The notes beneath the pieces were generated by a model that was not told where the DNA came from, did no database searches, and was given only the letters and a program-made list of their open reading frames with translations. Shown one piece after another: positions 1 to 9,868 of a stretch of 9,868 bases of DNA. The position numbers were made by a program, and so were the translations under genes. Position 1 is the stretch's first letter, and the number at the start of each line of letters is the position of its first letter. The stretch comes from Burkholderiales bacterium (GTDB taxonomy: Bacteria > Pseudomonadota > Gammaproteobacteria > Burkholderiales > Burkholderiaceae): assembly GCA_947371645.1 (NCBI GenBank), contig CANBQJ010000138.1, positions 1-9,868 of the forward strand, given 5' to 3'.

Positions 1-3000
1 TGCGACAGCTGCCACAAGGGTGGCTACACCGCCTGGAACCCGGGGCAGTTCCACGCCAACTTCAGCGTCAGCACCTCGTGCACCACCTGCCACACCGGCA
101 CCTTCAACGGGCCCGATGGCAAGAGCAGCAACCACATCCCCTTTGCCAGTGTGACGGCCTCGGCCAGCGCCGGTTGCGAGACCTGCCACAAGGGCAGCTT
201 CACCAGCTGGGCCACGGGGAAGTTCCACGCCAACGTCACCACCAGCACCCAGTGCGCCAGCTGCCACCTGACCAGCGCCTTCGGGGCCACAGCCAAGTCC
301 ACCGACACGCTGCACAGCACGGTGACGGGCAACTGCGAGTCCTGCCACAAGAGCACGGTGGCATGGGCCAGCGGTGCCCAGGTGGACCACAGCACCTTCA
401 CCTCGGCCACCAACTGCGCCACTTGCCACGACGGCAGCAGCGCCACCGGCAAGACGTCCACCCACATCCCCACCACGGTCAACTGCTTCAGCTGCCACAA
501 CGTCACCGCCTGGACGCCCACGAAGTGGAACCACACGCAGACCACCGTCAAAGGCGTGTGTTCCACCTGCCACTCCGGCAGCTTCCCACCGGCCGATGGC
601 AAGACCGCTGACCACATCCCCTATGCGTCGGTCTCGGTGAGCGCCTCGGCCAATTGCGACAGCTGCCACAAAGGTGGCTACACCGCCTGGAACCCGGGAC
701 AGTTCCACGCCAACTTCAGCGTGGCCACGTCCTGCGCCACCTGCCACACCGGCACCTTCAACGGGCCCGATGGCAAGAGCAGCAACCACATCCCCTTTGC
801 CAGCGTGACGGCCTCGGCCAGCGCCGGCTGCGAGACCTGCCACAAGGGCAGCTTCACCAGCTGGGCTACGGGGAAGTTCCACGCCAACGTCACCACCAGC
901 ACCCAGTGCGCCAGCTGCCACCTGACCAGCGCCTTTGGCGCCACGGCCAAACCCAATGACAGCACCCACACCGGCGTGACGGGCAACTGCGAATCCTGCC
1001 ACTCCAGCACGTCGGCATGGGCCAGCGGCACGCGGGTGGACCACAGCGGCTTCACCTCGGCCACCAACTGCGCCAATTGCCACAACGGCAGCAGCGCCAC
1101 CGGCAAGACATCGACCCACATCCCCACGTCGGTCAACTGCTTCAGCTGCCACAACGTCACCGCCTGGACGCCCACGAAGTGGAACCACACCCAGACCACG
1201 GTCAAGGGTGCCTGTTCCACCTGCCACTCCGGCAGCTTCCCTCCGGCGGACGGCAAGACCGCTGACCACATCCCTTACGCGTCGGTCTCGGTGAGCGCAT
1301 CGGCCAACTGCGACAGCTGCCACAAAGGTGGCTACACCGCCTGGAACCCGGGGCAGTTCCACGCCAACTTCAGCGTGGCCACGTCCTGCGCCACTTGCCA
1401 CACCGGCACCTTCAATGGCCCGGACGGCAAGGTCGGCAACCACATCCCCTACGCCAGCGTCACCGCCTCGGCCAGCGCCGGCTGCGAGACCTGCCACAAG
1501 GGCAGCTTCACCAGCTGGGCCACGGGCAAGTTCCACGCAAGCGTCACGACCAGCGCCCAGTGCGCCTCCTGCCACCTCACCACCGCCTTTGGCTTGACCG
1601 CCAAGCCCACCAACTCACTGCACAGCGCGGTGACGGGCAACTGCGAGTCCTGCCACAAGAGCACGGCGGCCTGGGCCACCGGTGCCCAGGTGGACCACAG
1701 CACCTTCACCACCGCCACCAACTGCGGCAGCTGCCACGACGGCAGCAGCGCCACCGGCAAGACGTCCACCCACATCCCGACGTCGGTCAACTGCTACAGC
1801 TGCCACAACGTCACCGCCTGGACGCCAACGAAGTGGAACCACACCCAGACCACCGTCAAGGGTGCCTGCTCCACCTGCCACTCCGGCAGCTACCCGCCCG
1901 CTGACGGCAGGCCTGGGAATCACATCCCCTATGCGTCGATCTCGGTGAGCGCATCGGCCAACTGCGACAGCTGCCACAAGGGCGGCTACACCAGCTGGAA
2001 CCCGGGCATGTTCCACGCCAACTTCAGCGTGGCCACGTCATGCACCACCTGCCACACCGGCAGCTACCTGGGCCCTGACCCCAAGCCCAGCAACCACATC
2101 CCCTATGCCAGCGTGACGGCCTCGGCCAGCGCCGGTTGCGAGACCTGCCACAAGGGCAGCTTCACCAGCTGGGCCACCGGCCAGTTCCACAGCAACGTGA
2201 CCACCAGCACCCAGTGCGCCTCGTGTCACCTCACGACCGCCTATGGCCTGACCGCCAAACCCAATGACGCCACGCACGCCAGCGTGACGGGCAATTGCGA
2301 GTCCTGCCACAAGAGCAGCGCCTCATGGACCAGTGGCACCAAGGTGGACCACACGGCCTTCACGTCGGCCACCAACTGCGGCAGCTGCCACAACGGCAGC
2401 GCGGCCACTGGCAAGACGTCCACCCACATCCCGACGACGGTGAACTGCTTCAGCTGCCACAACGTCACCGCCTGGACGCCCACCAAGTGGAACCACACGC
2501 AAACCACGGTGACCGGTGCGTGCTCGACCTGCCACACCGGCAGCTATGCACCGGCCGACGGCAAGCCGGGCAACCACATCCCTTACGCGTCGATCTCGGT
2601 GAGCGCATCGGCCAACTGCGACAGCTGCCACAAGAGCGGCTACACCAGCTGGAACCCGGGCATGTTCCACGCCAACTTCAGCGTGGCCACGTCCTGCGCC
2701 ACCTGCCACACCGGCAGCTACCTGGGCCCCGATGGCAAGGTCAGCAACCACATCCCCTATGCCAGCGTGACGGCCTCGACCAGCGCCGGCTGCGAGACCT
2801 GCCACAAGGGCAGCTTCACCAGCTGGGCCACCGGCAAGTTCCACAGCAACGTCACCACCAGCACCCAGTGCGCCAGCTGCCACCTGACCACGGCCTATGG
2901 CTTGACGGCCAAGCCAGCCAACTCGGTGCACAGCACGGTGACGGGCAACTGCGAGTCCTGCCACAAGAGCACGGCCGACTGGGCCAGCGGCGCCAAGGTG

Positions 3001-3420
3001 GACCACAGCACCTTCACCACCGCCACCAACTGCGCCAACTGCCACAACGGCAGCGCGGCCACCGGCAAGACGTCCACCCACATCCCCACCACGGTCAACT
3101 GCTACAGCTGCCACAACGTCACCGCCTGGACGCCCACGAAGTGGAACCACACCCAGACCACCGTCAAGGGTGCCTGCTCCACCTGCCACTCCGGCAGCTA
3201 CCCGCCTGCCGACGGCAAGCCGGGCAACCACATCCCCTATGCCGCCGTGTCGGTGAGCGCATCGGCCAACTGCGACACCTGTCACAAGAGCGGCTACACC
3301 AGCTGGAGCCCTGGCCAGTTCCACCTCAACGTCAGCGCCAGCACGCAATGCGCCACCTGCCACACCGGCAGCTACCTGGGCCCATCGGGCAAGGTGAACA
3401 ACCACATCCCGTACACCAGC
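1..3420 (+). repeat. Tandem 654-bp octaheme repeats (5 full copies plus a leading partial)
   Basis: Full copies lie at 151-804, 805-1458, 1459-2112, 2113-2766 and 2767-3420, each exactly 654 bases (218 codons, 8 CxxCH). Bases 1-150 are the final 150 bases of an earlier copy and differ from 655-804 at 9 positions by hand count. The 38-base block at 175-212 recurs identically at 829, 1483, 2137, 2791 and 3445. Copies 1 and 2 differ at about 19 of 218 residues. Neighbouring copies resemble one another most: the leading partial and copies 1-2 share TGTFNGPDG, while copies 3-5 share TGSYLGP. This suggests step-wise local duplication. No indel breaks the period. The array could contract or expand by recombination and is a risk for short-read assembly. 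Confidence 0.97.
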
Positions 3421-4032
3421 ATCGCGGCCACAGCATCGGCTGGTTGCGAGACCTGCCACAAGGGCAGCTTCACCAGCTGGGCCACGGGGAAGTTCCACGC
3501 TTACGTCACCGTCACCTCGCAATGCACCACCTGCCACACGGGCGCCTACCTCGGCCCTGACCCCAAGCCCAGCAACCACATCCCTTATGCCAGCGTGACG
3601 GCATCCGCCAGCGCCGGTTGCGAGGCCTGCCACAAGAGCACCACCACCTGGACCACAGGCCAGTTCCACACCAACGTCAAGGTCACCGGCCAGTGCAACG
3701 TTTGCCACAACAGCAGCGCATATGGGCAGACGATCAAACCGAGCAACCACATCCCGCTGGCCCAGCTGATGAACGGCACCAGCATGGATTGCAGCGCCTG
3801 CCACACCGTGACCACGTCCGGCGGCTTCGCCACGGCCACCATGAACCACAACAACAGCCAGGGCAATGGCTCAGGCTGGTGCTACGCCTGCCACAACACA
3901 GGCACGTCCTACCTGGGCAACATGACCCGCAACTCGCTCACGCACAACAAGAGAACGGGCGTCACCGACTGCTCGCAGTCCGGGTGCCACCGTCCGCTGG
4001 GCAGCCGCGGCACCGCCTACAAGAGCTGGTGA
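1..4032 (+). CDS. Giant tandem-repeat multiheme c-type cytochrome (5'-partial)
   Basis: The frame is open from base 1 to the TGA at 4030-4032, so the start and any signal peptide lie upstream; the GTG at 151 is an internal Val of the repeat, not a credible start. The visible 1343 residues contain 48 CxxCH covalent haem motifs and one CX4CH near the C-terminus (about residues 1322-1328). I also count 48 non-motif histidines, in contexts such as FHAN, VDH, THIP, WNH and NHIP, giving one possible distal ligand per CxxCH haem. Haem density is about one per 27 residues, as in small class III/c7-type and tandem multiheme cytochromes. The protein is rich in Ser, Thr, Asn and Gly, with no transmembrane segment in the visible part, which suits a periplasmic or extracellular electron carrier. 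The outer-membrane-type protein and the ccm genes downstream fit this role. The family type is near certain; the electron donor, acceptor and cellular location are inferred. Confidence 0.96.
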   Translation, partial: CDSCHKGGYTAWNPGQFHANFSVSTSCTTCHTGTFNGPDGKSSNHIPFASVTASASAGCETCHKGSFTSWATGKFHANVTTSTQCASCHLTSAFGATAKSTDTLHSTVTGNCESCHKSTVAWASGAQVDHSTFTSATNCATCHDGSSATGKTSTHIPTTVNCFSCHNVTAWTPTKWNHTQTTVKGVCSTCHSGSFPPADGKTADHIPYASVSVSASANCDSCHKGGYTAWNPGQFHANFSVATSCATCHTGTFNGPDGKSSNHIPFASVTASASAGCETCHKGSFTSWATGKFHANVTTSTQCASCHLTSAFGATAKPNDSTHTGVTGNCESCHSSTSAWASGTRVDHSGFTSATNCANCHNGSSATGKTSTHIPTSVNCFSCHNVTAWTPTKWNHTQTTVKGACSTCHSGSFPPADGKTADHIPYASVSVSASANCDSCHKGGYTAWNPGQFHANFSVATSCATCHTGTFNGPDGKVGNHIPYASVTASASAGCETCHKGSFTSWATGKFHASVTTSAQCASCHLTTAFGLTAKPTNSLHSAVTGNCESCHKSTAAWATGAQVDHSTFTTATNCGSCHDGSSATGKTSTHIPTSVNCYSCHNVTAWTPTKWNHTQTTVKGACSTCHSGSYPPADGRPGNHIPYASISVSASANCDSCHKGGYTSWNPGMFHANFSVATSCTTCHTGSYLGPDPKPSNHIPYASVTASASAGCETCHKGSFTSWATGQFHSNVTTSTQCASCHLTTAYGLTAKPNDATHASVTGNCESCHKSSASWTSGTKVDHTAFTSATNCGSCHNGSAATGKTSTHIPTTVNCFSCHNVTAWTPTKWNHTQTTVTGACSTCHTGSYAPADGKPGNHIPYASISVSASANCDSCHKSGYTSWNPGMFHANFSVATSCATCHTGSYLGPDGKVSNHIPYASVTASTSAGCETCHKGSFTSWATGKFHSNVTTSTQCASCHLTTAYGLTAKPANSVHSTVTGNCESCHKSTADWASGAKVDHSTFTTATNCANCHNGSAATGKTSTHIPTTVNCYSCHNVTAWTPTKWNHTQTTVKGACSTCHSGSYPPADGKPGNHIPYAAVSVSASANCDTCHKSGYTSWSPGQFHLNVSASTQCATCHTGSYLGPSGKVNNHIPYTSIAATASAGCETCHKGSFTSWATGKFHAYVTVTSQCTTCHTGAYLGPDPKPSNHIPYASVTASASAGCEACHKSTTTWTTGQFHTNVKVTGQCNVCHNSSAYGQTIKPSNHIPLAQLMNGTSMDCSACHTVTTSGGFATATMNHNNSQGNGSGWCYACHNTGTSYLGNMTRNSLTHNKRTGVTDCSQSGCHRPLGSRGTAYKSW
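3421..3768 (+). repeat. Two shortened diheme repeats after the octaheme array
   Basis: After the fifth octaheme copy the pattern changes. Bases 3421-3594 (58 codons) hold CETCH and CTTCH. The first half matches haems 1-2 of the octaheme unit, and the second half (TGAYLGPDPKP then NHIPYAS) matches haem 8. This looks like a fusion of module 1 with module 4 by internal deletion or unequal exchange. Bases 3595 to about 3768 hold a more diverged diheme copy (CEACH, CNVCH) about one codon shorter. Both keep the conserved Trp, the FH histidine eight residues before the second haem motif, and the NHIP histidine. Confidence 0.85.
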
Positions 4033-4082: not shown

Positions 4083-6614
4083 ATGAAACTTGCCCTGATT
4101 CCTCGCCTGCTGGCGCCGCTGATGCTCGTGACGCTGACAGCACACGCCGAAGTGGTGGACGACATCGATGTGCGCCGTGAGGGGGCCAATGCGGTCGTGC
4201 AGATCCACCTGGCCATGCCCATCAACTTCGTGCGGGCCACCTCGTCTCGGACCAACGACCTGACGCAGGCTTACTACCGCGTGCGCCCCAGCCTGTCGGA
4301 CAAGCCGGCCTATGTGCCCGGTGAGCGCCGGGTGATCGAGATCAAGGGCCTGCCGGTCATCACCATCGAAGACGAACCCGTCCAGACCGGCTTCCTGCAA
4401 GACGCCAACCGCCGCCTCGTGATGGCCCTGGGACAGCCCACCAGGTTCAAGGTGCGCAGTGGCAAGGGCGACCGCACCATCGACCTCGTGCTGGAAGGCC
4501 TGGCCAGCAAGGTGCCTGACGACACCGGCTTCCTGAAGATGTCGTCCGCCGCACTCGGCCCCGATCAAAACTACGTGATTGCGCTGTTGCGCTCCAGCTC
4601 ACCCAAACTGAGCATGGACCTGCCGGTGCCCCAATCCCTGCAGCAGTACCAGGTCTTCACCTCGCGCCGCCTGGTGCAAGGCAAGCAGGTGCACGAGATG
4701 GACCTGGGCTACTTCAGCACCCTGGCCGAGGCCGAAGCCGCGCTGAAGCAGATCCGGAGCCGCTACCCGGAATCCGTGATCGTCCAGTTGCAAAACCAGG
4801 CCACGGCACCGACTGTCGAAGCCGATGTGTTGCCGCTCAAGAGCGCCACGGCCCTGCAAGACAGCGACTCGCAGGCGCGCAGCCTGCTGGAGCAAGGCCG
4901 ACAGCAATTCGAACAGCGCCAGTTTGACGATGCACTGAACACCCTGAACCAGGCACTGACCCTGCCCGTGACCGCCATCACCCCGGACACCCACGAGTTG
5001 CTGGGCCAGGTGCTGGCCGCCATGGGCGAAAACGGCCGCGCCGAAGCCGAGTTCAATGCCTACCTGAAGCAATACCCGGAAGGCCCTGGCGCCCAGCGCG
5101 TGCGCGACGCCCTGGCCGCGCTCAAGCCACCCTTGGTCATCACCGGCACCGCCATCGACGGCAGCAAGAAGCCCGAAGAGACCTCATCGGTCACCGGCTC
5201 GGTCTCGCAGTACTACTACGGCGGCAAGCTGACCTCCGACCAGAAGGCGCAGCGCCTGGTCGAAGGCACGCCCCTGACGGCCGACGAGATCGCCAACAAC
5301 AGCAAGCTGCCGCTGACGCAGGACGCGCAGAGGCTGCTGTCCACCAACGCCGATGCCACCTGGCGCACGCGCAACAGCGAGCGCGAGATGAAGATGGTGG
5401 TGCGCGACCAACTGGACTACAACCTGCTTGGCCGCGACGTGCTCAGGGACAAGAGCCGCTACCGCAACCGCCTGACGGCCGCCTACTTCGACTACATGGG
5501 CCTGACGGCCTCGCGCCTGCGCGGACGCCTGGGCCGCCAGAACGCCAGCTGGGGCGGCGAAGGCCGCTACGACGGCGCATCTGGCAGCTACACCTTCAAA
5601 CCCAAATGGAAGGTCTCCGGCGCCACCGGGGTGCCCGTGGACGGCGTGGCGGACAGCAACCGCTACTTCGCCGGTGCTTCCTTGGACGCCGACGCCATCA
5701 CGCCGAATTTCGGCGCTTCCACGTTCGTGCTGCAGCGCATGATCGACGGCGAAGTCGACCGCCGCGCCATGGGCATGGACCTGCGCTACTTCGCCGGCCC
5801 CGGCTCGGTCATGGGCTCGGTGGACTACGACGTGCTGTACCGCAAGCTCAATGGCGCCAGCCTGCAGGGCATGTACCTCAGCGAAGGCAACACCACGATC
5901 AACTTCCTGTCGGAACGCAGGGCGCTGGTGCCGGTGTCCTTGAGCCAGACCCTGTTCTTCCAGTACGCAGACTTGCAGAGCAACGGCATCCAGCCGCGCA
6001 ACATCAAGGACCTGAAGAACTTCTACACCACCCAGCAACTGCGGGATTTCGTGCGCAGCAATGCCTCGTATTTCACCCACACGATGGTGTCTGCCACGGT
6101 GCCCGTCACCACGCAATGGCAGCTGGGATCGGACTTCCACCTCAACAATGTCGGCGCCATCGCCCCCAACGAGGCCATCGGCAACATGGGGCAGGCGGCG
6201 ACCGGCCAGGTGCGTTCGCTGGGCGTGCAAGCCATCGGCACCAACCTGTACTCGCCCCGCGACACCCACGTGTTCGGCCTGAACACCAGCCGCGGCCGCA
6301 TCAACCGCAGCAACCAGTTCAACTACAACAACATGACCTCGCTGGACGACCAGTGGGAACTCGACCCCAGCTTCCACTGGGTGCGCAGTGTGACCCTGGA
6401 CAATGCGGGTGCAATCCAGAGTACCACCGTGGCTTACGGCCCCGGAATCAGGGCATCATTCAAGCCCAAGCCGTCCATCACCCTGGAAACCAACCTCAGC
6501 GTCGACCGCACCAACACGGTCAACATCACGACCGTGAACACCCCGGGTGACACCGCCACCACCAGCAAGAGCAACCTGTTCACTTACTACCTTGGCTACC
6601 GGTACGAGTATTGA
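4083..6614 (+). CDS. Outer-membrane protein: AMIN-like, SPOR-like, TPR-like and beta-barrel regions
   Basis: The ATG at 4083 is chosen because it starts a clear signal peptide (MKLALIPRLL then a Leu-rich core) with an AHA cleavage site after residue 22. The open frame upstream only overlaps the cytochrome gene. The Shine-Dalgarno is weak. The product is 843 residues. Residues about 23-140 form a beta-rich AMIN-like region. Residues about 185-235 (YQVFTSRRL, then LGYFSTLAEAEAALKQI) resemble a SPOR peptidoglycan-binding fold. Residues about 265-345 look like TPR helices (FEQRQFDDALNTLNQAL). From about 370 to the end there are alternating polar/hydrophobic stretches, many Tyr, Asn and Arg, and a final aromatic-rich strand ending YRYEY, typical of an outer-membrane barrel. 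I found no cysteine, so it should not bind haem c itself. TPR plus barrel also occurs in polysaccharide exporters such as PgaA and BcsC, so a transport role is possible. From its neighbours I infer a partner, anchor or conduit for the giant cytochrome. The overall family is not recognised. Confidence 0.85.
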   Translation: MKLALIPRLLAPLMLVTLTAHAEVVDDIDVRREGANAVVQIHLAMPINFVRATSSRTNDLTQAYYRVRPSLSDKPAYVPGERRVIEIKGLPVITIEDEPVQTGFLQDANRRLVMALGQPTRFKVRSGKGDRTIDLVLEGLASKVPDDTGFLKMSSAALGPDQNYVIALLRSSSPKLSMDLPVPQSLQQYQVFTSRRLVQGKQVHEMDLGYFSTLAEAEAALKQIRSRYPESVIVQLQNQATAPTVEADVLPLKSATALQDSDSQARSLLEQGRQQFEQRQFDDALNTLNQALTLPVTAITPDTHELLGQVLAAMGENGRAEAEFNAYLKQYPEGPGAQRVRDALAALKPPLVITGTAIDGSKKPEETSSVTGSVSQYYYGGKLTSDQKAQRLVEGTPLTADEIANNSKLPLTQDAQRLLSTNADATWRTRNSEREMKMVVRDQLDYNLLGRDVLRDKSRYRNRLTAAYFDYMGLTASRLRGRLGRQNASWGGEGRYDGASGSYTFKPKWKVSGATGVPVDGVADSNRYFAGASLDADAITPNFGASTFVLQRMIDGEVDRRAMGMDLRYFAGPGSVMGSVDYDVLYRKLNGASLQGMYLSEGNTTINFLSERRALVPVSLSQTLFFQYADLQSNGIQPRNIKDLKNFYTTQQLRDFVRSNASYFTHTMVSATVPVTTQWQLGSDFHLNNVGAIAPNEAIGNMGQAATGQVRSLGVQAIGTNLYSPRDTHVFGLNTSRGRINRSNQFNYNNMTSLDDQWELDPSFHWVRSVTLDNAGAIQSTTVAYGPGIRASFKPKPSITLETNLSVDRTNTVNITTVNTPGDTATTSKSNLFTYYLGYRYEY

Positions 6615-7230
6615 TGCGCGCACACCGCCAGCTGCCACCTTCGCCTTGCAGACCCAGGACCTGGGCTGTCAGCGGGGCGGCCGGCTGCTGTTCGCACACC
6701 TGAACCTCACCGTGTCCCCAGGTGAGGCCGTGTGGGTGCGTGGCCCCAACGGCCGTGGCAAGACCAGCCTGCTGCGCCTGCTCAGCGGCCTGTCCCACCC
6801 GGCCCAGGGGCAGGTGCAGCGCGGCCAACCCCTGGTGTTCATGGGCCACCAGCACGCCCTGAAAGAAGACCTCTCATCCCTGGAGGCGCTGCAGTTCCTG
6901 GCCCGGCTTCACGACGAGCCCAGCGACGACACCGTGCTGACCCAGGCCCTCACTCGCCTGGGCGTGGCCCACCGCCGCCGCGCCCTGGTGCGCACCCTGT
7001 CGCAAGGTCAGCGCCGCCGCGTTGCCCTGGCACGCCTGGCTTTGCCGGCCGCGCCCCGCACCTGGATCCTGGACGAGCCCTTCGATGCCCTGGACGACGA
7101 AGGCGTGGCCACGCTCAACGCCCTCATCGCCCAGCACTGTGCCAACGGGGGGGCCGCCGTGTTCACCAGCCACCAGGAGGTGAACCTGAACGGTTTGCGC
7201 ACCTTGTGGCTTGAAGCAGCGGGGGCCTGA
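6547..7230 (+). CDS. ccmA: Haem exporter ABC ATPase CcmA (start uncertain)
   Basis: CcmA is the ATP-hydrolysing subunit of the CcmABCD complex, which releases holo-CcmE after haem loading in System I cytochrome c maturation. With the GTG start, Walker A (GPNGRGKTS) lies at residues 66-74, the Q-loop at Gln102, the signature LSQGQ at 151-155, Walker B (WILDEP) at 173-178 and the switch His at 209. All are intact. The start is unclear. The GTG at 6547 gives 227 residues and overlaps the previous gene by 68 bases. In-frame TTG codons at 6592 and 6646 give 212 and 194 residues. The family usually has about 205, beginning close to the ALQTQDLGC segment. None of these starts has a good Shine-Dalgarno. 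The ATG at 6614 overlaps the upstream stop but is out of frame. Translation is probably coupled to the upstream gene. Function is secure. Confidence 0.93.
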   Translation: MTPPPPARATCSLTTLATGTSIDARTPPAATFALQTQDLGCQRGGRLLFAHLNLTVSPGEAVWVRGPNGRGKTSLLRLLSGLSHPAQGQVQRGQPLVFMGHQHALKEDLSSLEALQFLARLHDEPSDDTVLTQALTRLGVAHRRRALVRTLSQGQRRRVALARLALPAAPRTWILDEPFDALDDEGVATLNALIAQHCANGGAAVFTSHQEVNLNGLRTLWLEAAGA

Positions 7231-7235
7231 ACAGC

Positions 7236-7892
7236 ATGTGGCCCCTGATCCGGCGAGACTGGCAGCTCGCGGCACGACGCCGCGTCGAAGCGCTGCTGCC
7301 CCTGGTGTTTTTCGTCGTGGCCGCCAGCCTCTTCCCGCTGGGCGTGGGGCCGGAGCCGCAGGTGCTGCGCATCATCGCGCCCGGCGCCCTGTGGGTGTGC
7401 GCCCTGCTGGCGTCGCTGCTGTCGCTCACCAGCCTGTATGGCCCCGACCTGGCCGACGGCAGCCTGGAGCAGTTCCTGTTGTGCGGCCGTTCGCTGCCCG
7501 CACTGGCCCTGGGCAAAGCCTTTGCCCACTGGACGATCTTCGGCCTGCCCCTGGTGCTCACAGCCCCCCTGCTGGGCCTGATGTTCGATGTGCACGCCCC
7601 GGAACTCGCGACCCTCACCCTGGGTCTCTTGCTGGGCACCCCGGTGCTCAGCCTGCTGGGCAGCGTGGGGGCCGCCTTAACCCTGGGTTTACGTGCCGGT
7701 GGCATGCTCATCGTCCTGCTGGTGCTGCCCCTGGCCATTCCGGTGCTGATTTTCGGCGCTGGAGCGGTCAGCGCCGTCTCGGCAGGCCTGTCTCCTGAGG
7801 GACACTTGTCACTGTTGGCGGCACTGCTGCTGCTCACCCTGCTGGGGGCCCCCTGGGCCACCGGCGCCGCCCTGCGCATCGCGCTGGACTGA
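7236..7892 (+). CDS. ccmB: Haem exporter membrane subunit CcmB
   Basis: CcmB is the inner-membrane permease partner of CcmA in the CcmABCD complex. The 218-residue length matches the family (about 220). The N-terminus (RRDWQLAARRR) is the usual short basic cytoplasmic lead. About six hydrophobic helices follow, with the family-type segment SLYGPDLADGSLEQFLL at about residues 65-82. The ATG at 7236 lies 5 bases after the ccmA stop, so translation is probably coupled; there is no strong Shine-Dalgarno. The C-terminus (ATGAALRIALD) is typical, and no disruption was seen. Confidence 0.95.
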   Translation: MWPLIRRDWQLAARRRVEALLPLVFFVVAASLFPLGVGPEPQVLRIIAPGALWVCALLASLLSLTSLYGPDLADGSLEQFLLCGRSLPALALGKAFAHWTIFGLPLVLTAPLLGLMFDVHAPELATLTLGLLLGTPVLSLLGSVGAALTLGLRAGGMLIVLLVLPLAIPVLIFGAGAVSAVSAGLSPEGHLSLLAALLLLTLLGAPWATGAALRIALD

Positions 7893-7898
7893 CACACC

Positions 7899-8642
7899 AT
7901 GGCTGGATTGACCTGGACCACCTTCTCCGCGCCCTCGCGCTTCGAGCCCCTGGCGGCTCGCCTGATCCCCTGGCTGTGGGTGACGGCGATCGGCTTTGCG
8001 CTGGCCGCGCTTTACATGGGCTTCATCGTCGCGCCCACCGACTTCCAGCAGGGCCAGTCCTACCGCATCATCTTCATCCACGTGCCGGCGGCCTGGATGT
8101 CCATGGTGCTCTACATGGCGATGGCGTTCTGGGCCGGCATCGGCTGGGCGTTTCGCGTGCGGCTGGCCTCCATGCTGGCGCGGGCCATCGCCCCCACGGG
8201 CGCCCTGCTGACCTTCCTGGCGCTGTGGACGGGGGCCTTCTGGGGCAAGCCCACCTGGGGCACCTGGTGGGTGTGGGACGCGCGGCTCACGTCCGAGCTG
8301 ATCCTGCTCTTCCTCTACCTGGGCTTCATCGCTCTGGTCGAGGCCATCGACGACCCCCAGCGAGGTGACCATGCCGGCGCCTTGCTGGCCCTGGTCGGGG
8401 TGGTCAACGTGCCCATCATCTATTTTTCGGTGAAGTGGTGGAATACCCTGCACCAAGGCTCGTCGATCAGCATGACGGCTGCCCCGAAAATGGCGGCCAC
8501 GATGCTCACGGCCATGCTGCTGATGACCATCGCTTTCTGGGCCTACGCCTTCGCCGTCGTCTTCACCCGCACACGTGCCGTGGTGATCGAGCGCGAGCGC
8601 GACGCGCAATGGGTGCGCGCACTGGCCCAATCACAGCAGTAA
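7899..8642 (+). CDS. ccmC: Haem-handling membrane protein CcmC
   Basis: CcmC presents haem at the periplasmic face of the inner membrane and loads it onto CcmE. The 247-residue product has about six transmembrane helices. The tryptophan-rich WWD haem-binding segment is at about residues 115-127 (WGKPTWGTWWVWD). The two periplasmic histidines that ligate haem in this family are present: His61 in FIHVPAAW and His185 in NTLHQGSS. Length and residue positions agree closely with E. coli CcmC (245 residues, His60 and His184). The start is 6 bases after the ccmB stop. All key residues are intact, so it should be functional. Confidence 0.97.
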   Translation: MAGLTWTTFSAPSRFEPLAARLIPWLWVTAIGFALAALYMGFIVAPTDFQQGQSYRIIFIHVPAAWMSMVLYMAMAFWAGIGWAFRVRLASMLARAIAPTGALLTFLALWTGAFWGKPTWGTWWVWDARLTSELILLFLYLGFIALVEAIDDPQRGDHAGALLALVGVVNVPIIYFSVKWWNTLHQGSSISMTAAPKMAATMLTAMLLMTIAFWAYAFAVVFTRTRAVVIERERDAQWVRALAQSQQ

Positions 8643-8647
8643 GGTGA
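8642..8647 (+). promoter_or_regulatory. Shine-Dalgarno of ccmD
   Basis: AGGTGA sits four bases before the ATG at 8652 and overlaps the ccmC stop codon. It supports the start of the small ccmD gene and suggests that ribosomes finishing ccmC restart there. Confidence 0.6.
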
Positions 8648-8651
8648 TCTC

Positions 8652-8825
8652 ATGCAGCAATGGCAAAGCTGGTCGCAATTCTGGAACATGGACGGTTACG
8701 GCCTGTACATCTGGGGCTCCTATGGCGTGACCCTGGCGTGCATGGTGATCGAGCCCCTGCTGGCCGTGCGGCGCCGCCGCCAGGCCCTGACGCACGCGCT
8801 GCAGCAAGACGACGAGGCAATTTGA
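8652..8825 (+). CDS. ccmD: Small haem exporter subunit CcmD
   Basis: This 57-residue product begins [20 protein letters not shown]. It has one hydrophobic helix at about residues 17-39 ([19 protein letters not shown]), followed by an Arg-rich stretch (RRRR at 40-43) and a polar tail. Those are the hallmarks of CcmD: the MDGYG(x)YIW-type entry into the helix and the basic cytoplasmic end. CcmD is a short single-pass protein that is needed for holo-CcmE to leave the CcmABC complex. It lies in its standard place between ccmC and ccmE, 9 bases after ccmC and one base before ccmE. Confidence 0.93.
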
Positions 8826-8826
8826 C

Positions 8827-9288
8827 ATGACCCCAAGAAAGAAGCGGCTCTACCTGATCCTCGGCGGTGTCGCCGTGGTGGGCGTGGCCGTGGCCCTGGT
8901 GCTCCGCGCCTTCAACAGCAACATGGTGTTCTTCTACACACCCACCCAGATCGCCGCCAGAGAAGTGCCGATCGACCGCACCTTCCGCTTAGGGGGCATG
9001 GTCCGCACCGGCTCGCTGAGGCGTGACGGCGTGACGGTTCATTTCATCGTCACCGACACCGTCAAGGACGTGAACGTGAGCTATGAAGGCATCCTGCCCG
9101 ACCTCTTCAAAGAGGGCAAAGGCGTGGTGGCCCAGGGCAAGATCACCGAGCAAGGTCAGTTCGTGGCCCAGGAAGTCCTGGCCAAGCACGACGAAAACTA
9201 CATGCCGCCCGAAGCGGCCGAGGCGATGAAACGCGCCAAGGCCGCCAAGGCAGCCGTCACGGCCCAAACGGCCAAGGAGTCCCCATGA
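8827..9288 (+). CDS. ccmE: Periplasmic haem chaperone CcmE
   Basis: CcmE binds haem covalently through a histidine and carries it from CcmC to the CcmF/H ligase. The 153-residue product has a basic N-terminus (TPRKKR), one transmembrane anchor at about residues 8-26, and then the OB-fold beta domain ([39 protein letters not shown]). The haem-binding site [10 protein letters not shown] is intact, with His121 as the haem-attachment residue and the adjacent DENY Tyr. This is the usual His type, not the Cys variant of archaea and some bacteria. The C-terminal tail is rich in Ala and Lys, as is common. A GAGG at 8814-8817 is a plausible ribosome binding site. The stop overlaps the ccmF start (ATGA). 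Confidence 0.97.
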
Positions 9289-9868
9289 TCCCCGAGTTGG
9301 GCCAGTTGGCCCTGTTGCTGGCCCTGGCCGTGTCCCTGCTGCTGGGCACCGTGCCGATGTGGGGCGCCTACAAAGTGCGCCGCGACCTGATGGGCCTGGC
9401 CCGGCCCTTGTCCCGGGTGATGTCGGTGCTGGTGCTGGGTGCCTTCGTGCTGCTGGCGTCGTCCTTCATCCGCAACGACTTCTCCGTGCTGTACGTGGCG
9501 TCCAACTCCAACAGCGCCCTGCCCCTGGCTTACCGCGTTGCGGGCGTGTGGGGCGGCCATGAAGGCTCGCTGTTGCTGTGGGTGTCGATGCTGTCGCTGT
9601 GGATGCTCGCGGTGGCGCAGTTCAGCCGCCACCTGCCCGAGGTCATGGTGTCGCGCATCCTGGGCGTGATGGGCTGGATTGCCTTCGGCTTCCTGCTCTT
9701 CATGCTGAGCACCTCCAATCCCTTTGACCGCCTGCTGCCGGCCGCCATGGACGGCAACGACCTGAACCCCCTGCTGCAAGACCCGGGCATGGTGGCGCAC
9801 CCGCCCATGCTCTACATGGGCTATGTGGGCTTCTCGGTGGCCTTTGCCTTCTCGATCGCGGCCCTGCT
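9285..9868 (+). CDS. ccmF: Cytochrome c haem lyase subunit CcmF (3'-partial)
   Basis: The ATG at 9285 overlaps the ccmE stop by 4 bases and is preceded by a strong AAGGAG at 9274-9279. The frame stays open to the window edge, giving 194 residues of a family usually about 650 long. CcmF is the large multi-pass inner-membrane protein that takes haem from CcmE and, with CcmH (and CcmI where present), ligates it to CxxCH motifs. Visible hallmarks are [10 protein letters not shown] at about residues 90-99, NPFDRL, and the [20 protein letters not shown] stretch near the window end. The WWD segment and later helices lie beyond the window. No frameshift was seen. Confidence 0.96.

What the first reader, a model, noticed from the sequence alone, without database searches (positions are those of the whole stretch)
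1..4032. Cytochrome with at least 49 haem sites built from an exact 654-bp octaheme repeat
The visible portion alone has 48 CxxCH plus one CX4CH, and the gene continues upstream. Five in-phase copies of a 218-residue, 8-haem block plus a preceding partial copy make a regular array rather than an irregular multiheme protein. A repeating octaheme rod of this length would be a natural single-polypeptide electron wire, unlike filaments polymerised from small cytochromes such as OmcS or OmcZ. The wire function is inference; the repeat and the haem count are read directly.
Basis: partly seen in the sequence, partly recalled or inferred. Interest (0 to 1): 0.85.

Follow-up and report, generated by a model that had tools for sequence, protein, structure and literature searches.

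The report
Giant repeat-built PCC3-type cytochrome
A bacterial protein with at least 49 haem sites, built from a repeated eight-haem unit, that belongs to an already described class of giant electron-transfer cytochromes and is notable mainly for an uncommon repeat unit and for lying next to a set of haem-attachment genes.

Summary
Bases 1-4032 are one frame, cut by the contig's 5' end, with 48 CxxCH and one CX4CH; the period is exactly 654 bp over five copies without indels, but the copies are 84-91% identical, not exact. Each of the 48 intervals between motifs holds exactly one further histidine, a full set of candidate ligands.

Best reading: the extracellular cytochrome of a PCC3 porin-cytochrome cluster (He et al. 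2017), a known repeat-rich class with up to 85 haem sites and a published wire hypothesis. The next gene is a TPR protein with a predicted 22-strand barrel. In relatives with enough flank, the PCC3-type inner-membrane protein and a 21-27-haem cytochrome lie upstream (31 of 31, combining); both are outside this contig.

Less usual: an eight-haem repeat (best period in 6 of 120 listed homologs; six haems in 100), and ccmA-F directly downstream, recurring in many but not all relatives (39 of 61). The structural test of haem stacking failed (pLDDT 44.6). Wire function remains inference; published data do not support Fe(II) oxidation by PCC3 in ES-1.

The parts
1..4032 (+). giant multihaem cytochrome gene, 5' end missing (1343 codons visible, 48 CxxCH + 1 CX4CH)
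1..654 (+). octaheme repeat copy 1 (four diheme modules)
655..1308 (+). octaheme repeat copy 2
1309..1962 (+). octaheme repeat copy 3
1963..2616 (+). octaheme repeat copy 4
2617..3270 (+). octaheme repeat copy 5
3271..4029 (+). C-terminal region, 8 CxxCH and the terminal CX4CH (CSQSGCH), conserved at the C-terminus of many relatives
4083..6614 (+). TPR protein with predicted 22-strand outer-membrane beta-barrel (843 aa), candidate PCC3 porin
6547..7230 (+). ccmA reading frame (true start not settled; profile match begins at residue 33-34 of this frame)
   Evidence: NF010061, TIGR01189 above cut-off
7236..7892 (+). ccmB
7899..8642 (+). ccmC
8652..8825 (+). ccmD
8827..9288 (+). ccmE
9285..9868 (+). 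ccmF, 3' end missing (below the whole-protein cut-off because it is cut)

Best explanation
This is the extracellular multihaem cytochrome of a PCC3-type porin-cytochrome cluster of a Burkholderiales bacterium, nearest in sequence to Aquabacterium-like relatives. Proposed path: an inner-membrane protein with two b haems exchanges electrons with quinone; a 24-haem periplasmic cytochrome carries them across the periplasm; the TPR/beta-barrel protein (4083-6614) forms the outer-membrane passage; the giant cytochrome extends outward as a single-chain haem array that reaches an external donor or acceptor. The Ccm proteins encoded next door attach the haems. Shown: the motif array, one further histidine per CxxCH, the adjacent barrel gene and ccm genes, and the full cluster in relatives. 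Inferred: export, bis-histidine ligation, haem-to-haem contact, direction of flow, the substrate, and the presence of the two upstream genes in this organism.
For: 49 motifs in 1343 aa (27 aa per motif), rich in T, S, A and G, as in the published PCC3 description. One further His in 48 of 48 intervals and in 3920 of 4122 intervals of the 95 homologs that I judged complete among the 120 listed. ORF2 modelled as TPR plus 22-strand barrel, mean pLDDT 79.4, pTM 0.51, with matches to outer-membrane barrels over residues 363-843. A multihaem ORF lies directly upstream of the barrel in 68 of 78 loci; in 9 of the other 10 the barrel ORF runs off the contig's 5' end and in L078 it starts 122 bases from it. 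Of 31 loci whose upstream multihaem ORF starts inside the locus beyond base 3500, the script found the inner-membrane protein by its two WX3HX13H motifs in 29, a periplasmic-type 18-30-haem ORF in 28, and both in 26; the 2 missing inner-membrane proteins appear by tblastn and the 3 missing cytochromes (24 motifs each) in the ORF list. Aquabacterium sp. NJ1, named PCC3-bearing by He et al., has inner-membrane protein, 24-haem ORF, 40-CxxCH ORF, barrel and ccmA-F in a row, identified by the contig length 4,869,099 shared by P0140 and G173.
Against: The window holds neither the inner-membrane protein nor the periplasmic cytochrome, because the contig starts inside the giant gene. Location is predicted only. 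I did not compare with the type loci of Sideroxydans ES-1 or Leptothrix cholodnii SP-6, nor see He et al.'s supplementary list, so that NJ1's listed cluster is this one is inference. In five loci (L058, L066, L069, L070, L071) the inner-membrane protein and 24-haem gene lie downstream, so the order is not universal. In several loci (for example L007, L009, L010, L022, L026, L048) the giant gene is split over more than one ORF in the draft sequence. Published data do not support Fe(II) oxidation: both ES-1 clusters fell on Fe(II) (PMC8788666 passages), and Slit_1448 (extracellular cytochrome) is 0 in all listed proteome columns (PMC12016527 passage). The cytochrome model was unusable.
Confidence: 0.78

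Rival explanations
1. The protein is mainly an electron store (capacitor), periplasmic or surface-bound, rather than a directed wire.
For: PMC10138318 passages describe monomeric many-haem cytochromes such as GSU1996 as periplasmic electron reservoirs; the profile of this family matches GSU1996 best in the PDB (E=1.3e-8); Hoover et al. also raise a capacitor role for PCC3.
Against: Conserved neighbourhood of an outer-membrane barrel and a second, 21-27-haem cytochrome.
Confidence: 0.15
2. The extra length mainly serves surface reach or mineral or sheath binding, and only a few haems take part in turnover; repeat number drifts neutrally.
For: Motif count varies from 27 to 86 among 95 complete homologs, and repeat copies within the window are 84-91% identical, consistent with turnover by duplication.
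Against: One further His per CxxCH is kept in 48 of 48 intervals and in 3920 of 4122 intervals of homologs; dN/dS 0.18-0.37 between copies.
Confidence: 0.06
3. The repeat count is an assembly artefact (copies collapsed or chained).
For: The contig starts inside the array, as expected where an assembler breaks at a repeat.
Against: The five copies differ at 9-17% of bases and share no exact in-register run above 71 nt; homologs on long contigs have arrays of similar length.
Confidence: 0.05

Closest known systems
PCC3 extracellular multihaem cytochrome (He et al. 2017, PMC5566968)
   Same: Very many CxxCH (median 34, up to 85), median 26 aa per haem, repeats, rich in T, S, A and G, next to an outer-membrane barrel gene, with periplasmic cytochrome and inner-membrane protein in relatives
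   Different: Eight-haem repeat where most listed homologs have six; ccm operon next door, not mentioned in He et al.'s main text (0 occurrences of ccm, maturation or biogenesis)
GSU1996 dodecahaem cytochrome of Geobacter sulfurreducens (PDB 3OV0)
   Same: Repeated haem domains on one chain forming a haem wire; best PDB profile match (E=1.3e-8); NCBIfam nanowire_3heme model above cut-off (94.7 against 40 bits)
   Different: Triheme domains with one His-Met haem each, 12 haems, periplasmic; here diheme modules, at least 49 motifs, and only 6 Met in the visible 1343 residues
OmcS, OmcE and OmcZ filaments
   Same: Extended haem chains (passages)
   Different: Polymers of small cytochromes; no row of the 25 bears those names, which is not proof of unrelatedness
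MtrA/DmsE and MtrC/OmcA decahaem cytochromes
   Same: Partial profile matches and the same porin-cytochrome logic
   Different: Scores below the curated cut-offs (137.9 against 192.2; 107.9 against 209.3 bits)

Membership tests
PCC3 porin-cytochrome cluster | extracellular-type cytochrome with very many haem motifs, low aa/haem ratio and repeats | tested here: met
   49 motifs in 1343 aa, five repeats; definition
PCC3 porin-cytochrome cluster | adjacent outer-membrane beta-barrel protein | tested here: met
PCC3 porin-cytochrome cluster | periplasmic cytochrome with about 21 or more haem sites in the cluster | tested here: inconclusive
   outside the contig; in relatives 28 of 31 by script, the other 3 in the ORF list
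PCC3 porin-cytochrome cluster | inner-membrane protein with SGXXG and two WX3HX13H motifs | tested here: inconclusive
   outside the contig; in relatives 29 of 31 by motif, the other 2 by tblastn
PCC3 porin-cytochrome cluster | homology of the barrel to the type PCC3 porins | not tested
   type sequences of ES-1 and L. cholodnii SP-6 not fetched; a 56% identical protein is in Aquabacterium sp. NJ1
PCC3 porin-cytochrome cluster | extracellular location of the giant cytochrome | not testable with these tools
   predicted only
GSU1996-type triheme nanowire | triheme domains with one His-Met haem each | tested here: not met
   diheme modules, one further His after each of 48 CxxCH, 6 Met in all
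MtrA/DmsE decahaem (TIGR03508) | score above the curated cut-off | tested here: not met
   137.9 against 192.2 bits
OmcA/MtrC decahaem (TIGR03507) | score above the curated cut-off | tested here: not met
   107.9 against 209.3 bits

The most novel reading that the evidence does not exclude
A single-chain haem wire whose length is set by in-frame duplication of diheme modules (six-haem units in most relatives, eight-haem units here), inherited as one cassette with the outer-membrane passage and, in many lineages, with the genome's only System I haem-attachment operon, so that wire length and haem-attachment capacity evolve together.
Probability: 0.25. Interest if true: 0.6.

Novelty: new member of a known kind. 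Interest (0 to 1): 0.35.

Why it matters
Natural single-chain haem arrays of 50-86 motifs are good test cases for how far electrons can hop along one polypeptide, and this family offers a length series built from the same module (27 to 86 motifs in 95 homologs). PCC3 clusters are widespread but functionally untested according to the papers seen. The link to ccmA-F suggests a handle: in genomes with the ccm operon at this locus, deleting it may switch off the giant cytochrome while System II, where present, serves the others.

Tried and rejected
Haem stacking by structure: AlphaFold2 of residues 873-1343 with 37 sequences gave mean pLDDT 44.6 and pTM 0.25; not used, no fold search run on it.

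Counting octaheme units by spacing with a tolerance of 3 residues: not discriminating, since 85 of 120 homologs then have at least one such run (a six-haem unit preceded by the 25,32 end of the previous unit matches too). I rely instead on the best period in the same call (8 haems in 6 of 120, 6 haems in 100 of 120, others 14), which is a sequence-similarity measure on the best 120 of 787 hits only.

Novelty as a record haem count: rejected; He et al. report 85 and P0042 here has 86. Plasmid origin: no match on two searches of plasmids. Single-sequence PDB search: only one chance-level row (E=0.5). Absence of MtrB-like barrels in the VIA list says nothing, as that list is a capped second look.

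The second contig said to hold the same ORF2 protein (P0121) could not be fetched.

Ccm link as a general rule: not upheld. Of 61 loci with at least 6 kb downstream, 39 have one or more ccm hits within 7 kb, 32 have three or more, and 22 have none; one single CcmA hit (L048) may be an unrelated ABC protein. In the 299-genome sample, ccm lies beside the barrel in 11 of 22 (by eye), and 99 of 277 genomes without the barrel have CcmB too.
Full report
1. The observation. Bases 1-4032 form one frame open at the contig's 5' end. It has 48 CxxCH and one CX4CH in 1343 residues. The only period is 654 nt / 218 aa, and the spacing cycle 26,32,26,27,27,23,25,32 repeats five times without an indel. The copies are not exact: 83.5-91.1% identical in DNA and 81.2-92.2% in protein. 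Shuffling the residues 1000 times gave at most 3 CxxCH. Each of the 48 intervals between successive motifs has exactly one further histidine; the terminal CX4CH segment has none. This makes one candidate distal ligand per CxxCH and is the strongest sign that the array is functional. dN/dS between copies is 0.18-0.37.

2. Anatomy of the repeat. The blocks divide into four diheme modules of 58, 53, 50 and 57 residues. Of the 120 listed homologs, 100 have their best period at six haems and 6 at eight (P0001, P0003, P0018, P0022, P0037, P0085), the other 14 elsewhere. The common six-haem cycle is close to 26,27,27,23,25,32, so the window's unit reads as that cycle plus one diheme of 26,32; P0003 carries both kinds of unit. 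P0018's eight-haem unit (205 aa) has the extra pair elsewhere, which suggests that eight-haem units arose more than once. This is inference from spacing and period; no tree of modules was made. The window's blocks are 78-83% identical to P0003 and 71-78% to P0001, against 81-92% among themselves.

3. Homologs. 787 proteins at E <= 0.001 among 7995 scored candidates; the best 120 are listed. Named sources include Aquabacterium, Rubrivivax, Rhodoferax, Ideonella, Caenimonas and Pelomonas. I judged 95 of 120 complete: median 37 motifs, range 27-86, and 34 with 49 or more. They begin with a signal-peptide-like stretch and an FDH-type N-terminal cap, so the window's full protein probably exceeds 49 motifs; P0001, of the same kind, has 67.

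4. Neighbours. ORF 4083-6614 is a TPR protein modelled with a 22-strand C-terminal barrel that matches outer-membrane barrels. Then come ccmA, ccmB, ccmC, ccmD, ccmE and the start of ccmF.

5. Relatives. An alignment of ORF2 relatives found 78 loci in genome contigs. A multihaem ORF lies directly upstream of the barrel in 68 of 78; the others are at contig starts. Of 31 loci with enough upstream sequence, the script found an inner-membrane protein with two WX3HX13H motifs in 29, an 18-30-haem ORF in 28 and both in 26. The remaining 2 and 3 were then found by tblastn and in the ORF list. These motifs are those that He et al. give for the PCC3 inner-membrane protein (passages). In five loci these two genes lie downstream instead. 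Loci L053, L056, L059, L060, L064 and others have longer spacing per haem and lack the CX4CH terminus.

6. Identification. He et al. 2017 (section 15 read whole) define PCC3 as porin, extracellular and periplasmic giant cytochromes and inner-membrane protein, and name Aquabacterium sp. NJ1 as a bearer. P0140 is NJ1's ORF2 relative on a contig of 4,869,099 bases; G173's contig has that same length and carries inner-membrane protein, 24-haem, 40-CxxCH, barrel and ccmA-F genes in a row. That G173 is NJ1 is inferred from the contig length, and that this is the cluster He et al. counted is inferred too, as their supplement was not available. Later papers extend PCC3 to Sideroxydans and Leptothrix with 10-57 haems (passages: PMC10734462; PMC12442390; PMC13386937).

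7. Function. A conduit is the best reading, on the grounds of context and ligand regularity. Against a role in Fe(II) oxidation: both ES-1 PCC3 clusters fell on Fe(II) (PMC8788666 passages), and the extracellular cytochrome Slit_1448 is 0 in the listed proteome columns (PMC12016527 passage). In CL21, PCC3 genes are expressed above the mean and one inner-membrane gene rose with iron-oxidising ability (PMC12442390 passages). Haem stacking could not be tested.

8. The ccm link. In 16 genomes chosen from the loci, 14 have a single CcmB; its coordinates fall in the fetched locus in 15 of 16 (compared by eye; L041 is the exception, and G013 and G014 have a second copy elsewhere). ResB of System II is above cut-off in 10 of 16. 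In a sample of 299 genomes of one family, 22 have the barrel (E < 1e-100), and 20 of these have CcmB against 99 of the other 277 (Fisher p = 3.5e-7, no correction for kinship); in 11 of 22 the two are adjacent. I found no mention of the link: He et al.'s main text has no ccm, maturation or biogenesis; PCC3 with 'cytochrome c maturation' gives two papers, one of them a Pseudomonas paper whose passages do not make the link, the other (PMC3555230, on thylakoids) seen in the listing only; a third search gave nothing pertinent in its listing, and passages of one listed Leptothrix paper had no ccm. Papers outside the held library were not searched.

9. Verdict. A real, intact-looking, unusually regular member of the known PCC3 class, with an uncommon octaheme unit and an interesting maturation-gene neighbourhood. 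Not a new kind of wire.

Noticed in passing
window 6547-9868; L001-L006 and others: A ccmABCDEF operon follows the cytochrome-barrel pair and is the only CcmB of the genome in 14 of 16 genomes examined; System II (ResB) is also above cut-off in 10 of 16.
   Followed up: partly
L058, L066, L069, L070, L071: Rearranged clusters: inner-membrane protein and 24-haem gene lie downstream of the giant gene and barrel, with ORFs of roughly 480-565 and 760-780 aa between.
   Followed up: no
L053, L056, L059, L060, L064 and others: A second group of giant cytochromes (45-78 CxxCH in 2054-3036 aa in these five) with longer spacing and no CX4CH terminus beside the same barrel family.
   Followed up: no
P0018 and locus L003: An eight-haem unit of 205 aa whose extra diheme sits at another place than in the window, suggesting separate origins.
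   Followed up: partly
window 6595-6620: The ccmA frame has no ATG near its expected start: an ATT precedes the aligned region and the nearby ATG at 6614 is in another frame, so the start is unclear or rare.
   Followed up: no
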